Source: Desulfovulcanus ferrireducens (GTDB lineage Bacteria; Desulfobacterota; Desulfovibrionia; Desulfovibrionales; Desulfonatronovibrionaceae). From it: a stretch of 64,000 nt of DNA. Positions 1 through 57,740 of this stretch are shown piece after piece (position 1 is the stretch's first letter; every line of letters begins with the position of its first letter). Below the pieces are notes generated by a model that ran no database searches, was not told the DNA's origin, and saw only the letters and a list, made by a program, of their open reading frames with translations. A program made the translations under genes and the position numbers. The stretch spans positions 1 through 64,000 of the forward strand of contig NZ_JAGUQP010000012.1 in NCBI RefSeq assembly GCF_018704065.1, in the 5' to 3' direction.

Positions 1-64
1 AAAATTGTTCTTGAAAACAAAATAAACTAACCAATAAATTTTAACCATTAACTATTGACAAAAA

Positions 65-360
65 ACACAGTTGCTGAGTTAATTTGCGAGCGCATTTTCT
101 TCAATGCTAACAAAGAGTTGGACACATCTAAGGCTTGCTTGCGGACTGTGCATAATGGGGTTAGTCACTAGAATGTTACTTCATGCCTTTTCTGTTGTTA
201 TGATGGGTTTCGAAAGTTCGATGGAACAACCTCCCTATGCACAGCACTTCCGCAATCTTCGCCAAGATGTGTTACCCAACCCGTTTGTAATGCATTTCAG
301 AAAATGCTCTCTTCAATTGTGTAGTAATTTGAGGGTGTTAATCATGTCAGAAAGTTGAGT
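65..360. repeat. Family A palindromic MITE-like element, copy 1
   Basis: This is 296 bp, closely similar over its full length to 44578-44873, which is also 296 bp. The two halves form a long imperfect inverted repeat: the left arm containing GCTTGCGGACTGTGCATA pairs with a right arm containing TATGCACAGCACTTCCGC. The right end AAGTTGAGT is conserved; the left end is degenerate. The flanks CAAAAA (59-64) and CAAAAT (361-366) look like a worn 6-bp target duplication. It has no coding capacity, so it would be non-autonomous. Confidence 0.8.
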
Positions 361-411
361 CAAAATGTCCAAACTTAAGTCCTGTTTTTTGGGAGATAAT
401 ACCTTTAAGCT

Positions 412-474
412 TGTAGCCGAATCTTTTTAGAAACCAAGATTTTCAATTAGCGGCTAAAATGGAGTTTAGCAGCA
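412..474. repeat. Family B element, internally deleted remnant
   Basis: The left end TGTAGCCGAATCTTTTTA matches the left end of the 304-bp element at 15683, and the following bases match its right end (GAAACCAAGATTTTCAATTAGCGG against the AAACCAAGACTTTCAATCAGCGG of the copy at 57414). The roughly 240-bp centre is missing. It is best read as an internal-deletion derivative of family B. Confidence 0.6.
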
Positions 475-762: not shown

Positions 763-928
763 CCTAACTTGAGCGATTTTTTTGCAGTTCAAACTTAGAG
801 GTTGTCATTGCGAGGGCAGCGAAACTGGCCGTGTCAATCTATCCCACTGGGTGAAAATCGCTGGCTCAAAATCTACTTTATTCCAATATGCTTAATGTAA
901 AACTCAATTAAAAATCGCTCAACTTAGA
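763..928. repeat. Family D MITE-like element with target duplication, copy 1
   Basis: The 18-bp ends are inverted copies with one mismatch: CTAACTTGAGCGATTTTT (764-781) and AAAAATCGCTCAACTTAG (910-927). An exact TTAACA repeat flanks the element (757-762 and 929-934). The centre carries a TCATTGCGAGGGCAGCGAA stretch of the common REP-like type and is shared with 44144-44352. The element ends a few bases before the ATG at 937, so the promoter and ribosome site of that gene must lie in or be altered by it. Confidence 0.8.
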
Positions 929-936
929 TTAACAAA

Positions 937-3900
937 ATGACTGCGGGCATGAAGATAGAAGAGCCTGGGATAAAAAAGAAGGAAGTCAGGCGTATTTTCT
1001 GGATGGTCTGGATACTGGCCGCGATGGGCATCTTGGCCGGTGCCGTGATTACCGGTGTCATCGGTTGGGAGTTGAAGAAACTCCGCCACGAGCGTTCCAA
1101 ACTCCTTGTTCAGAATGCCCATCTTATTAAGATGGCAGAGACATTCGAACACTGGCTCTCAAAGGCAGATGACGATATCCAGGCTATTTTGGATCCCAAA
1201 TCACCTACTGCGATTACAAGTTACTGGATAAACGAGTTTATAAGTGAGATCGATAAGCACCGAAACTGTCCTTTATCCTTAGAAACACCTGAACTGTTTG
1301 CTGAACTGGAAAGTAAGGTGTCTGACCTGGCCCAATTTCGCGGCCAGTGTATCTTCTGGCGAACGCAATATAATGCCGTAATGGATGATGTCCGTCAGGA
1401 TCGAACACTTAAGCGGGCGCGTGGACTTATCAGTAGCTTCCTACATTCGATCGAAACCGCAGAGGCTGAAAATAATTCAAAAAAGGCTGTTTTGCTGCGC
1501 AAGTTTGAGGGTTCTCAAGGAAAAGAAGCCCTTTCGTTGCCCCGTCAGTTTATGTGTGAGGAAGTTATACAGCTTGAGCGTCATTTAGGGGCAGTAAAAA
1601 AAGAGTTGAATGAACTGGCCCTACTAATAGAACGTCTGGCCGGTGCCAGGGAGATAGAAGAGTTGGATAGCCTCAAAGATAAAAAAATTAAGCCCTGCTT
1701 AGAGCGGTTACGATACTCTATTAATGTTCTCTGGAATTCTACTGGGTTTTCGAGCATGCCAGGTTTTGAGGATATATCCAGACTGGAGAATATCATTTTT
1801 GGAGATGGGTACGTGTTCGATGAGGCCAAGCAAACTATAGTTCCGGGTAGCGGTGGGCTATATGCCTTGAAGCGCAGATTGATTCAACTGGAGCCGGAGA
1901 GAATGGCTTTAGTTATGGAGGCGTACGAGCGTTTTCAGGCTTTGCACAAGATTTGTGAACAATATAAGCTGGTCATTCGGAATAACGCCGATGCTTCAGC
2001 CAAACATATTGATAGACTTTTGGCCTCTACCTGGAACAGTTTTTTGATGATAGGGGTATTTTGTTGTGCAGGTTTTCTTTTTCTTGCTTGGAAGATTTCC
2101 ACTGCCATCAAACTGGAAGCCGCAGCTAGAATAAAAGCTGAGAGTAGCAGTAAATACACTCAGGCTCTGCTTGATAATCTTCCCTTTGGCGTAGTTGTGA
2201 TTGGGACTGATCGTAAGATTAGAGAGTTAAATAAGGCTGCCTTGCAAATGCTAGACTTTAAATCCCAAGAGCAGATTATTGGGCAGGATTGTGACCTTTT
2301 ATGTCCGGTAAAAATGGATCAAGCCTGTCCCGTATTAAATCTGGGGCAAAAGGTAGAATCATTGGAAACAACAATCCGCAATGCTCAGGGAGAGAAGATA
2401 CCTGTGTTAAAAACAGTGATCCCTATTCGTCTGTGGGGAGAAGCTGTACTTGTTGAGGCTTTTGTGGACATCTCTGCGCAAAAGAAGGCCATCGAAGCAG
2501 CAGAAGAGGCGGCGCGTGTGAAATCTGAGTTTCTAGCCAATATGAGTCATGAAATCCGGACACCTTTAAATGGGGTTATAGGCATGCTTGGTCTTCTCTT
2601 GGATACAAAACTCACCCCTGAGCAGCGGGATTTTGCCGAAACCGCCAGAAGATCAGGAAATGCCCTGCTTGGTATTATCAACGAAATACTTGATTTTTCA
2701 AAGATTGAGGCCGGGAAACTTGAACTGGAAGAGACCCCTTTTAATGTTCACCAGCTTGTGGAAGACGTGACCGAGATGTTTGCGGAAGCTGCTTATGCCA
2801 AAAAACTTGAACTGTCCTGCCTCATTTATTCGGATGTGCCGGATGTTTTGCAGGGAGATTCAGGCAGGCTGCGGCAGATATTGACCAACCTGCTAGGCAA
2901 TGCAGTAAAGTTTACCGAAAGGGGAGAGGTTGTAGTTCGGGCGCGTAAAGCACAAGAGGATGTGGGCAGTGTTTTGATTCATTTTGAGGTTTCAGATACC
3001 GGGATTGGAATAAGTCCTGAGGTTCAGACAAAGCTGTTTGATCCATTCGTTCAGGCTGATTCTTCAACAACGCGTAAGTACGGAGGCACAGGGCTTGGCT
3101 TGGCTATTTGCAAACAACTGGCCGAGATAATGGGGGGCGAAATTGGAGTTCAAAGCGAGCCCGGCAAGGGCTCTACATTTTGGTTTACAGCCAGGCTAAA
3201 AAAGGTGGATGAAAGAGAAGCAGGAACGTTGCGGAGAAAAGACCTTCGTGGCCTTAAATTACTTATCGTTGACGACAATGAGACCAACCGAATTATTTTA
3301 GAACACTATGCTAGCAATTGGGGCATGAAGAGTGTTTCGGTCTCCTCTGGCCCGAGCGCCCTTACTGCCCTGGAAGAGGCTCAGGCCAGAAGAGAACCTT
3401 TTGATATAGCTATCTTAGACTTTATGATGCCGGAAATGGAGGGTATGGATCTGGGCAAAACTATCAAGGCAAGGCCAGAGCTGGCTGAAGTCCGTTTGAT
3501 ACTCCTCACCTCTTTTGCCAAGCGAGGTCAGGCCAATGAAGCCAGGGAAGCAGGATTTTCTGGTTATTTGACCAAGCCCGTTCGTCAGTCCCAGCTTTAT
3601 GATTGTCTTGCCATTGTTATGGGCGAGATTCCTAACCAGGAATCAAAAGAACAAGAACAGGATAGTATTCAGAGTTCCCCCAGGGCCAGGTCCAAAGGGC
3701 GGATACTCCTTGTGGAAGACAATGTGGTCAATCAGAAGGTGGCAATGCTTATGCTGGAGAAAATGGGTTACCTTGTAGATGTGGCTGCTAATGGCAAAGA
3801 GGCAGTGGCTGCCGTTAAAAAGATACCTTATGATTTGATCTTTATGGATTGCCAGATGCCGGAGATGGACGGCTTTGAGGCTACAGCAGAGATCCGCAAT

Positions 3901-15051: not shown

Positions 15052-15687
15052 TTGTTCAGGTTTGCTCTGAATTTTGGTTTTGTTGATCGGCCTCTGGTTG
15101 CTGCGCTTTTTTGGTCTTACATTACTGGTGAGTGGTCTGTAAGTCTTAATCTGGCTATATTTTTTGAGCTGTTCTGGCTTGATTTATTTCCAGCCGGAAC
15201 CTTTATCCCTCCACAGTCCTTATTTTCTACTTTTGCAAGTATAACCTTGATTCATATTCTGAATCTGAATTTAATAGAAGAGATTTTTTTTGCCATGATT
15301 TTGACCATACCTTTGGCCTTGTTTGGCTCTTGGCTAGAAGGACGACAAAGGGAGTGGCAGAATAAAAGTTATAACCAGTTACTAAAGCGTTGCAGACGTG
15401 GGTACCAGAACGAGAATAAATTTTGTCCGGGAAAATTAATTTCAGGGTCTATCCTTCAGATTTTGACCATAAATATTGTCTTTGCCTATCTTTCTATCCA
15501 TTTTCTTATTTTTATTTATGAAAAGATTGCACCCATTTTGCCTAGAAATTCTTTTTTGGCCTGGCCTTATTTATGGATTTTTGCCAGTATTGGGGGGATT
15601 CTTAGTCTTCGCATTCGCAGAGCTTACGCGGTGTTTTTTACCGGGGTTCTTACGGCTGGAGCTTATTTGATATTTAAGAGCTTGTAG
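15052..15687 (+). CDS. PTS mannose-family EIIC-like membrane protein
   Basis: This 211-aa multi-pass protein resembles sorbose/mannose EIIC permeases (FGFVDRPLVAALFWSYITG, then FFELFWLDLFPAGTFIPP, then several hydrophobic helices). It is somewhat short. The start is unsettled: TTG 15052 is the first legal start in frame, yet a good GGGGAG sits at 15025-15030 before a T9 run and a TTG (15038) that is in another frame and stops after ten codons. The frame is open back to 15013, reading hydrophobically. The last codons lie at the boundary of the family B repeat (15683 on). No EIID gene follows. Confidence 0.78.
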   Translation: MFRFALNFGFVDRPLVAALFWSYITGEWSVSLNLAIFFELFWLDLFPAGTFIPPQSLFSTFASITLIHILNLNLIEEIFFAMILTIPLALFGSWLEGRQREWQNKSYNQLLKRCRRGYQNENKFCPGKLISGSILQILTINIVFAYLSIHFLIFIYEKIAPILPRNSFLAWPYLWIFASIGGILSLRIRRAYAVFFTGVLTAGAYLIFKSL

Positions 15688-15986
15688 CCGAACCTTTTTA
15701 TCAGCTTAATTTCCATGGTTTATTCCAGTCTTGGTTTCTTGCATGCTGGTACAGAGACTTGGATACATCTAAAACTTGCTTGCGGACAGAGCATAATGGG
15801 ATATTTTGGGCAAACAGATTTTTTTATTGTCGATAGTTATGGTTAACATCGCAAAGTGTTTAGCCCATTCATCCCGATGCTCTGTTTTTCCGCAAGCTTC
15901 CCTAAGATGGGTTACCCAAGCCGTTTGTAATGAATTTCAGAAACCATGACTTTCAACCAGCGTTTAAAATTGAGGGGTTAGCCACA
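15683..15986. repeat. Family B palindromic MITE-like element, copy 1
   Basis: 304 bp, closely similar to 57414-57718. The ends are imperfect inverted copies of TGTAGCC(G/A)AACC. Inside, a long imperfect palindrome brings CTTGCGGACAGAGCAT opposite ATGCTCTGTTTTTCCGCAAG. The same stem theme occurs in family A, so the families look related. It fills nearly all of the EIIC-rsmE gap and starts at the EIIC stop codon. Confidence 0.8.
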
Positions 15987-16004
15987 TACATTTAAAGAAT
16001 TTGG

Positions 16005-44143: not shown

Positions 44144-44352
44144 CTAAATTGTGCGTTTTTTTTGCAGTTTAAAGTTTGAGATTGCATCAAGCCCAACGCT
44201 CCTCGCAATGGCTTAGCGTTCATCCTGTCATTGCGAGGGCAGCGAAGCTGTCCGTGGCAACCTCACCCATTGAGTGAAAATCGCTGGCTCAAAATCTACT
44301 TTTATTCCAATACGTTTAATGTAAAACTCGATTAAAAAACGCCTAATTTAGG
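44144..44352. repeat. Family D MITE-like element, copy 2
   Basis: 209 bp with ends CCTAAATTGTGCGTTTTTT and AAAAAACGCCTAATTTAGG as imperfect inverted copies. It shares the core (TCATTGCGAGGGCAGCGAA through TTAATGTAAAACTC) with 763-928 but has about 43 extra bases containing a perfect CCTCGCAATG/CATTGCGAGG hairpin (about 44204-44240). A target duplication is not clear. Confidence 0.75.
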
Positions 44353-44577
44353 TTTTGAAAAGTACCCTGAGTCCGTGAACTATTTAACCACCTTCAGGGG
44401 ACAAGCCCCGTCCATATGAATTCTTGAAAAGCCACGATAAACGTATGGACAATTTCATTCGTCCACCCTTTACAAACTCTGTGCAGTCCAGCTCTTGAAT
44501 TGTCCGAATAATGACGTGTTCGTGCAATCAGCAAATCAGAAGAAAGCTCCCCCAGGGGGCTATGCATAATTTATTAT

Positions 44578-44873
44578 ACTCAACTTTCTTAGTTAATTTG
44601 CGAGCGCATTTTCTTCAATGCTAACAAAGACTTGGACACATCTAAGGCTTGCTTGCGGGCTGTGCATAATGGGGTTAGTCAATAGAATATTACTTAATGC
44701 CTTTTCTGTTGTTATGATGGGTTTCGAAAGTTCGATGGAATAACCTCCCTATGCACAGCACTTCCGCAATCTTCGCCAAGATGTGTTACCCAAGCCGTTT
44801 GTAATGCATTTCAGAAAATGCTCTCTTCAATTGTGTAGTAATTTTAAGGTGTTAATCATGTCAGAAGTTGAGT
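44578..44873. repeat. Family A palindromic MITE-like element, copy 2
   Basis: 296 bp with inverted ends ACTCAACTT and AAGTTGAGT, flanked by exact TATTAT repeats (44572-44577 and 44874-44879). The right-hand duplication includes the dut stop codon, so insertion occurred exactly at the 3' end of dut without changing its protein. Full-length similarity to 65-360. Confidence 0.88.
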
Positions 44874-44875
44874 TA

Positions 44876-45343
44876 TTATATTTTGCCGGTGTGCCCAAAT
44901 CCCCCAGCGCCTCTCTGGGTAGGAGTTAGATTGTTTACGGGAACAATATTTGCCGTATAAACAGGCATAAACACCAATTGAGCTATGCGCTGGCCCCTGG
45001 ACACGACTCTTAGTTCCGGCGAGGTATTGAGAAGAGAGACAATTATTTCTCCACGATAATCCGGGTCAATAACCCCGACTCCCTGGCTAACAACCAGCCC
45101 TTCCTTTGTGCCTAGACCACTTCTGGAAAAAACAAAACCAGCAATGCCAGGCTGGGTGATTTCAATGGCTATGCCAGTGGGAAAAGCATATCTGTCCCCA
45201 GGCTCAAGAATAATTTGAGCCTGGTCGATACAGGCCCGCAGATCAATTCCGGCAGAATAAGGGGTGGCATAGCGGAAGTTTTCACTGGAGCAAAGTTCAC
45301 TCAAAAATTTGACTTTAACATCAATTTTGCAATTTTTGGTCAT
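44876..45343 (-). CDS. dut: dUTP diphosphatase
   Basis: Hydrolyses dUTP to dUMP, keeping uracil out of DNA and feeding thymidylate synthesis. At 155 aa it has the five trimeric dUTPase motifs, including AGIDLRA, SRSGLGTKEGL, GVGVIDPDYRGEI and the C-terminal RGAGGFGHTG arm. AAGGTAAA precedes ATG 45343. Its stop codon lies inside the 6-bp target duplication of element A2. Confidence 0.96.
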   Translation of the reverse strand: MTKNCKIDVKVKFLSELCSSENFRYATPYSAGIDLRACIDQAQIILEPGDRYAFPTGIAIEITQPGIAGFVFSRSGLGTKEGLVVSQGVGVIDPDYRGEIIVSLLNTSPELRVVSRGQRIAQLVFMPVYTANIVPVNNLTPTQRGAGGFGHTGKI

Positions 45344-57330: not shown

Positions 57331-57413
57331 GAGGTTAAAAGATTAAGAGGTAAAGATGTTAGGAGAAAATTAAGGACTTTCTATTAACATTTACATTTTA
57401 GCCTGTTAAAGCC

Positions 57414-57718
57414 TGTGAGCAAATCTTTTTATCAACTTAATTCCCATGCTTTATTCCAGTCTTGGTTCCTTTCATGCTGGTACAAAAACTTGGACCCATC
57501 TAAAACTTGCTTGCGGACAGAGCATAATGGGATATTTTAGGTAAACAAATATTCTTTTTATTATCGATAGTTATGGTTAATATCGCAAAGTATTTAGTCC
57601 AATCATCCCGATGCTCTGCTTTTCCGCAAGCTTTGTCAAGATGGGTTACCCAAGCCGTTTGTAATGCATTTCAGAAACCAAGACTTTCAATCAGCGGTGA
57701 AAATAGGGTTTGGCTACA
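57414..57718. repeat. Family B palindromic MITE-like element, copy 2
   Basis: 305 bp, closely similar to 15683-15986. The right end GGTTTGGCTACA is the reverse complement of the family left end TGTAGCCAAACC; the left end of this copy is degenerate. The inner stem CTTGCGGACAGAGCAT / ATGCTCTGCTTTTCCGCAAG is preserved. It fills the convergent gap between nadD and glpX. Confidence 0.8.
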
Positions 57719-57740
57719 GGCCTTCTAACCTTTTTTCCCT

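What the first reader, a model, noticed from the sequence alone, without database searches (positions are those of the whole stretch)
65..360. Family A: 296-bp palindromic element, equal-length copies 44 kb apart
65-360 and 44578-44873 are both exactly 296 bp and alike throughout. Each half folds on the other (GCTTGCGGACTGTGCATA against TATGCACAGC...TTCCGC), so the single strand would form one very long hairpin. Ends are ACTCAACTT/AAGTTGAGT. No transposase is present, so mobilisation would be in trans.
Basis: seen in the sequence. Interest (0 to 1): 0.5.

Follow-up and report, generated by a model that had tools for sequence, protein, structure and literature searches.

The report
Hairpin mini-transposon targeted by another transposon
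The repeat is a small transposon without its own enzyme, present about fifty times in this bacterial genome, whose long hairpin is kept by paired mutations and whose end is the landing site of a second mobile element that appears to find it with a guide RNA.

Summary
The repeat is real, but the two copies are not equivalent. Window 44579-44872 is an intact non-autonomous transposon (MITE "A": 294 bp, ends CTCAACTTTC, 8-bp target duplication TTATTATA). The copy at 65-360 is only A's last ~286 bp; bases 1-73 are the end of a different element, "T", at the contig edge. The equal length is a coincidence. The genome holds about 54 A copies, 25 of them with T at one exact place in the left terminal repeat. 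T splits a single CT dinucleotide, and its far end holds a hairpin whose two inner strands match both halves of that target (10 and 8 nt, both with the core; 0 of 20,000 shuffles have both). T therefore looks like an IS110/IS1111-type element, although its transposase was not seen. A's hairpin is not incidental: across A, a second MITE family B (other ends, 4-bp duplications) and relatives, 96% of pair cells pair and 21 of 56 pairs show compensatory change. IS1111 in Coxiella QMITE2 is a close precedent for T in A. One hairpin core carried by two MITE families with different ends is the unusual part. A's own transposase was not found; what the hairpin does is inferred.

The parts
44579..44872 (+). 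Intact MITE A (solo copy), 294 bp
   Evidence: ends CTCAACTTTC / AGAAGTTGAG
44571..44578 (.). Target-site duplication TTATTATA, left
   Evidence: 8 of 8 identical
44873..44880 (.). Target-site duplication TTATTATA, right
44602..44825 (+). Conserved hairpin core of A (56-pair consensus)
   Evidence: 244.8 bits; this copy is a member of the model
1..73 (-). End of element T (putative IS110/IS1111-type element), cut by the contig start; strand inferred from the C1 remnant and the guide hairpin
   Evidence: the same 70 bases in 24 of 24 composites longer than 270 bp
74..75 (.). CT core dinucleotide at the T-A junction (single CT in empty copies)
   Evidence: by comparison with empty copies
74..359 (+). 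Rest of the MITE A copy that T interrupts
88..311 (+). Hairpin core in this A copy
   Evidence: 237.6 bits; member of the model
360..367 (.). Target-site duplication TCAAAATG; the same 8 bases abut the other T end at the start of contig C41 (L124)
15678..15991 (+). MITE B copy, ends GAGCTTGTAGCC.., 4-bp duplication TTAA (ends and duplication read by eye)
   Evidence: core 15727-15951, 208.2 bits, not a member of the model
57409..57723 (+). MITE B copy; no exact 4-bp duplication left
   Evidence: core 57458-57685 (member of the model)
409..470 (+). MITE B remnant with the hairpin core deleted (read by eye)

Best explanation
Family A is a MITE: a ~294-bp element with no gene, moved by a transposase acting in trans that recognises CTCAACTTTC(T/G)GA ends and makes 7-8 bp target duplications. 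Between the ends lies a ~224-nt imperfect hairpin that is maintained as a hairpin. The same hairpin core, with different outer ends, also forms MITE family B, which uses another end (GAGCCTGTGGCC) and 4-bp duplications, so two different transposition machineries have carried it. About half of the A copies, including the one at the window's left edge, have in addition been entered by element T at one fixed dinucleotide of A's left terminal repeat, in one orientation. T behaves like an IS110/IS1111-family element whose bridge RNA (seekRNA) is programmed to A's end. Shown: copy number, ends, duplications, covariation, the site and orientation of T, T more uniform than the A copies it sits in, guide-target match. 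Inferred: both transposases (neither seen), expression of the guide RNA, and that the hairpin is selected, most likely as a folded DNA or RNA feature that helps the element persist or move.
For: 54 core matches, control 0. Exact 8-bp duplication in 8 and exact 7-bp in 10 of 25 scored solo copies, 19 of 25 with at least 7 of 8 or 7 of 7. In 20 of 20 solo loci examined (of 25) no ORF of 100 aa or more spans the element. Composites: 17 of 22 right flanks find a T left-end contig with the same 7-8 bp duplication, 0-2 of 22 at seven shifted offsets. T tip identical over 70 bp in 24 of 24 composites; the other T end is one identical 124-base string in 26 of 30, two more differ by one base, one has an internal duplication, one is an old remnant. 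The A parts of the composites differ by 3.7% on average (solos 3.5%, between 3.6%, A positions 11-289), and nearest neighbours mix the two classes as shuffled labels do (25.8 same-label against 24.4, 173 of 500 shuffles as high). Guide matches of 10 and 8 nt, both beginning at the core dinucleotide: 15 and 454 of 20,000 shuffles have one, 0 have both. Hairpin: 96.0% of 1115 cells paired against 30-45% when slid by 1-3 columns, 21 of 56 pairs with change on both sides (14.6 in shuffles), covariation score above 500 of 500 shuffles. Arms vary less than the terminal loop in A (2.4% vs 5.2%, 50 copies) and in B (6.7% vs 11.5%, 26 copies), column permutation p about 0.004 each. B: exact 4-bp duplication in 18 of 26 scored, 30 loci looked at.
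Against: No transposase for A or T was seen: no PF01548 hit in the held G000, no paired-end element of 0.4-3 kb with duplications in the loci held; six contigs under 3 kb (C55-C60) read N throughout. The number of further standard pair types is not above shuffles (316 of 500), so much of the covariation may be a few A-versus-B differences rather than many independent events. With one short composite (L051) and one cut solo (L149) left out, the mixing of composites and solos is weaker (27.5 same-label against 23.3, 48 of 500 shuffles as high). One of 26 T tips lies in the right, not the left, terminal repeat of a divergent A copy, where the site reads CT-GACTTA, one mismatch to the guide. In the predicted fold the two guide strands pair with each other over four bases.
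Confidence: 0.78

Rival explanations
1. T and A together are one autonomous transposon (A being its long right end), and the 294-bp solos are its internal-deletion derivatives; T carries A's transposase.
For: Composites carry the same kind of 7-8 bp duplications as solos; both outer ends read CTCAACTTTC.
Against: T's tip is invariant in 24 of 24 where the A parts of the same copies differ by 3.7%, and by 3.1% in the A bases nearest to T; composites and solos mix by nearest neighbour at A positions 11-289 (over 8-296 they separate, 41.2 against 24.6, but three of those columns are T's own bases in composites); removing T leaves a single CT where composites have two; T's hairpin strands match the site; one T sits in the other end of a divergent A.
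Confidence: 0.1
2. The hairpin arms match only because quasi-palindromes are corrected by template switching (one arm copied from the other), with no selection for the fold.
For: Paired changes often come in neighbouring positions (e.g. CTGTG/CACAG against CAGAG/CTCTG), as templated correction would give; few distinct pair types beyond shuffles.
Against: Fixed one-sided bulges (four unpaired bases after column 221, and part of GTTACCC at columns 255-257) are kept in A, B and relatives, although correction should erase them; arms are less diverse than the loop in both families.
Confidence: 0.25
3. The core is a non-coding RNA gene of a known class (for example an omega RNA of an IscB/TnpB system) spread as MITE cargo.
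For: Structured, conserved, multi-copy, shared by two MITE families.
Against: No Rfam family reaches gathering over the window; at relaxed threshold only two chance-like hits with E 1.5 and 3.5; the flanking genes of 20 solos show no single arrangement (8 ++, 4 +-, 4 -+, 4 --).
Confidence: 0.12

Closest known systems
QMITE2 and IS1111 of Coxiella burnetii (PMC5896051; title, abstract parts and passages seen)
   Same: A 150-190 bp MITE with 7-11 nt direct repeats and a palindromic stem that its authors suggest is under purifying selection; 20 of 21 annotated IS1111 copies are linked to a QMITE2 lacking 10-20 bp at its 5' end, those bases lying on the other side of the IS: the same architecture as T in A.
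   Different: A is longer (294 bp), T enters the terminal repeat itself, the guide strands matching the site can be pointed out here, and A's hairpin core is shared with a second MITE family with other ends.
IS4321/IS5075 (IS1111 family) in Tn21-family terminal inverted repeats (Partridge and Hall 2003; seen only as a reference title in PMC11208160)
   Same: An IS1111-type element that targets the terminal inverted repeats of another transposon.
   Different: The target here is a MITE with 7-8 bp duplications, and 25 of 26 T tips seen use one of the two ends.
IS621 bridge RNA (PMC11208160, passages) and seekRNA (PMC11187229, abstract and passages)
   Same: Core dinucleotide included in the guide pairings (CT in IS621); short sequences matching both strands of the target in one RNA.
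   Different: Transposase and donor loop not seen. That the guide lies near the far end fits the IS1111 arrangement better than IS621's (inferred).
Bacterial MITEs in general (review PMC10969869, passages)
   Same: Under 500 bp, TIRs, direct repeats, mobilised in trans.
   Different: One structured core in two MITE families with different ends and duplication lengths; not described in the passages seen.

Membership tests
MITE (family A) | Length under ~500 bp, no transposase gene | tested here: met
   294 bp; longest ORF lying wholly inside 41 aa
MITE (family A) | Terminal inverted repeats | tested here: met
   CTCAACTTTCTGA / TCAGAAAGTTGAG in most solos
MITE (family A) | Target-site duplications | tested here: met
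   7-8 bp in 19 of 25 scored solo copies
MITE (family A) | Autonomous partner with the same ends | tested here: inconclusive
   None in the loci held; contigs C55-C60 read N
IS110/IS1111 (element T) | DEDD transposase | tested here: inconclusive
   PF01548 absent from held G000, but T's interior is not in the held contigs
IS110/IS1111 (element T) | Fixed target site and orientation | tested here: met
   26 of 26 tips seen stand next to an A end: 25 left end, 1 right end of a divergent copy (one search scored 40 of 73 candidates)
IS110/IS1111 (element T) | Two-base core shared by both junctions and the empty site | tested here: met
   ACTCAACTTT-CT-[T]-CT-GAGTTA against ACTCAACTTTCTGAGTTA
IS110/IS1111 (element T) | Non-coding end with an RNA loop matching both strands of the target | tested here: met
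   Sequence match 10 and 8 nt, 0 of 20,000 shuffles with both; fold with 8 bases borrowed from the C1 remnant; expression not tested
IS1111 (element T) | Subterminal inverted repeats of 11-13 bp | tested here: inconclusive
   Only an imperfect TGTTTACATCA / TGTTTTTTGTCA by eye; alignment of the two ends is weak (score 24)
REP/REPIN | 20-40 bp palindromes served by RAYT transposases | tested here: not met
   A is 294 bp with TIRs and duplications; a RAYT gene was not searched for
Known Rfam RNA family (core) | Score above gathering threshold | tested here: not met

The most novel reading that the evidence does not exclude
The ~224-nt hairpin is an independently functional module (structured RNA, or hairpin DNA bound by a host or transposon factor) that has been moved onto two unrelated MITE chassis (A: 7-8 bp duplications; B: 4 bp) and is kept folded by selection for that function, not for either transposase.
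Probability: 0.3. Interest if true: 0.7.

Novelty: new variant of a known kind. Interest (0 to 1): 0.48.

Why it matters
The T/A pair gives a natural series, within one genome, of a probably RNA-guided insertion element spreading through the ends of another mobile element: one site, 25 insertions, plus one at a near-miss site. It allows guide tolerance to be read from nature. Separately, a hairpin kept by compensatory change while the transposon ends differ suggests that some MITEs carry a functional folded core, which a transcript or protein-binding assay could test directly.

Tried and rejected
Plasmid collection, distant search with A: no match. Rfam at gathering and relaxed thresholds: nothing convincing for A or for the T remnant. 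IUPAC core pattern: in genome contigs only three contigs of one Desulfohalobiaceae MAG (the window's own genome may be left out there), in viral contigs none. Covariance model over 150 genomes: hits in G000, G001 and G004 only, with the stricter filters and 15 candidates scored per genome, so weak or truncated copies are missed (G007 holds a truncated A). IS3-type OrfA next to an old T end in contig C1 was considered as T's transposase and dropped: one copy in G000; best relative elsewhere 43% identical (G006), 10 of 30 other genomes with a weak hit. IS110 loci of relatives: 12 compared with T's hairpin; three score 2-3 points above the best of ten shuffles, none more. A group II intron for T was rejected on its ends, by eye. 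IS607/IS605-type for T was not tested. End patterns in seven family genomes gave 34 places; the loci held contain no pair of ends 0.4-3 kb apart with a duplication.

Rows left out: second match of L022, L156 and L159 (under 88% identity) from the A list; three of 25 composites without a clean right end. L149 is listed as a solo but is cut by a contig end on the left, so 25 of those 26 are certain. At least three of the six failures (L033, L044, L055) are end-finding errors of my script (compare). The T left-end pattern included A's own first bases and is biased; the 26 of 26 count rests on the other end. My first nearest-neighbour reading was confounded by three T bases at A positions 8-10 and was redone.

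Full report
What was checked. The window is G000:C12:1-64000 of a 60-contig, 2.59-Mb genome. In the named genome collection an exact IUPAC core pattern is found in three contigs only, all of a MAG called 'uncultured Desulfohalobiaceae bacterium' (the window's own genome may be left out there); their lengths (3799, 3912, 11877) equal those of G001 contigs C222, C213 and C9, and the genome tool gives G001 as the same genus. The repeat D1 (71-352 against 44585-44866, 96%) is real, folds strongly on both strands and is one of 54 places in the genome (28 forward, 26 reverse) that match a 30-base core pattern with up to 3 mismatches, against none for the reversed pattern.

The two copies are different things. 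44579-44872 is complete, with ends CTCAACTTTC/AGAAGTTGAG and an 8-bp direct repeat TTATTATA outside. The first copy lacks the first bases of A; instead bases 1-73 belong to a sequence whose tip stands at 26 contig ends (40 of 73 candidates scored), each time running into an A copy. A different 124-base sequence, T's other end, which starts with CTCAACTTTCT and then departs from A, is found at 30 places by pattern: contig ends except for one old remnant inside C1. I take these as the two ends of one repeated element, T, that the assembly did not cross; its interior was not seen.

A is a MITE. Among 25 solo copies scored, 8 have an exact 8-bp and 10 an exact 7-bp duplication, 19 in all with at least 7 of 8 or 7 of 7. 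In 20 of these loci no ORF of 100 aa or more spans the element. The longest ORF wholly inside is 41 aa. G001 carries A-type elements, two nearly full-length ones at 70 and 73% identity, one with flanks TGATTTAA/TGGTTTAA (L085, read), and a further element type with the same ends and another interior (e.g. L218, flanks TAATTTGA/TAATCTGA). A pattern that catches both types has 136 places in G001. So one trans-acting system seems to move several MITEs; its gene was not found.

T inserted into A. Of A copies longer than 270 bp, 24 carry T and 26 do not show it, one of the latter being cut by a contig end; a 25th T-carrying copy is shorter. Matching right flanks to the T-left-end contigs, 17 of 22 find a partner with the same 7-8 bp duplication; seven shifted controls give 0-2 of 22. 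The window copy pairs with contig C41 by TCAAAATG. T's 70-base tip is identical in 24 of 24; its other end is identical in 26 of 30, with two one-base variants, one internal duplication and the old remnant. The A parts of composites differ by 3.7%, solos by 3.5%, between the two 3.6% (positions 11-289); even A positions 11-54, nearest to T, differ by 3.1% in composites (4.5% in solos). Over those positions nearest neighbours mix composites and solos no less than shuffled labels (173 of 500 as high; 48 of 500 with two doubtful copies left out). So T is probably a recent arrival in older, already diverged A copies. The empty site ACTCAACTTT-CT-GAGTTA becomes ACTCAACTTT-CT-[T]-CT-GAGTTA. A two-base core of this kind, CT in IS621, is a feature of the IS110 recombinases (PMC11208160, passages).

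The guide. T's far end, read inwards, ends with GACCAAAAGCTGAGTTACGGTGTCTTGATGCACCAGAAAGTTGAACGGTC. Between an outer stem and an inner GGTGT/GCACC hairpin two strands face each other: CTGAGTTA (core plus right half of the target) and AGAAAGTTGA (reverse complement of left half plus core) (the outer stem's 5' part was borrowed from the C1 remnant, and the fold pairs four bases of the two strands). The target halves match in the other orientation over at most 5 nt. Of 20,000 dinucleotide shuffles 15 hold the first match, 454 the second, none both. A's other end reads CT-GACATG or CT-GACACG in most copies, which fits the finding that 25 of 26 T tips are in the left end; the single exception (C9) lies in the right end of a divergent copy that reads CT-GACTTA. 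The old T remnant in C1 has CTGACTTA in its own loop. The transposase was not seen: PF01548 gives no hit in the held G000, though it does in 11 of the 41 genomes searched.

The hairpin. B (15678-15991, 57409-57723; 40 places scored of 237 candidates) has ends GAGCCTGTGGCC and exact 4-bp duplications in 18 of 26 scored, so a different machinery, yet shares the core with A (71 and 74% over 217 and 201 bp). In an alignment of 20 copies that I chose (7 A, 10 B, 2 G001, 1 G004) 96.0% of pair cells are standard pairs, against 30-45% when partners are slid by 1-3 columns; 21 of 56 pairs have compensatory change (14.6 in shuffles, 0 of 500 as high); but the number of further pair types equals the shuffles (316 of 500), which points to few independent events. 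One-sided bulges keep their place in A, B and relatives. Diversity is lower in arms than in the terminal loop for A (50 copies) and B (26 copies); columns were treated as independent there. A covariance model finds the core in 3 of 150 genomes searched: own, same genus, and one of a neighbouring genus.

How it most likely works. A moves by a transposase acting in trans (inferred from ends and duplications). The folded core is kept either because extrusion or transcription of the hairpin helps the element (favoured), or by arm-to-arm correction. T finds A's end by its guide RNA and inserts by a two-base exchange (inferred from site and guide). The T insertion leaves the outermost 10-12 bases of A's end in place, so a composite might still be carried by A's transposase; the data do not decide this.

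Known and new. IS1111 in the MITE QMITE2 of Coxiella (PMC5896051, abstract parts and passages) is the same architecture, with a stem whose authors suggest purifying selection; IS4321/IS5075 in Tn21 ends is another precedent (reference title only). T in A is a new example. One hairpin core in two MITE families with different ends I did not find described, with the searches only (open-access library; listings, plus passages of two papers), so this is a limited claim.

Noticed in passing
window 803-937 and 44226-44361: A different repeat (TGTCATTGCGAGGGCAGCGAA..., about 135 bp, 82-90% identical in two pieces) lies near both A copies; a similar sequence sits in the terminal loop of a B-like element in contig C50 (L070, by eye).
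   Followed up: no
L082 (G007:C94) against L059 (G000:C32): 1493 bp at 97.5% identity between two different genera of the family, ending at an A copy that is truncated in G007; recent transfer or a binning error.
   Followed up: partly
L133/L134 (G000:C1 about 234.2-234.8 kb): Old T end with guide strand CTGACTTA near an IS3-like OrfA reading frame; the guide differs by one base from the present T and equals the right-end site of the divergent A copy in C9.
   Followed up: partly
L218, L214, L215 (G001): High-copy small elements with the same CTCAACTTTC ends, often starting with two ends back to back (CTCAACTTTCGGAGTTCCGAAAGTTGAG), and an unrelated interior.
   Followed up: partly
L063, L064, L065 contig ends (C43, C44, C45): Another repeat at contig ends with CACTAGTGTCCGGTT, perhaps a separate insertion sequence; C43's other end reads like an IS3 OrfB C-terminus by eye.
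   Followed up: no
L053 (G000:C21 start): A T-carrying A copy inserted inside a B copy (flank TAATTTCCATGGTT), so B is older there.
   Followed up: no
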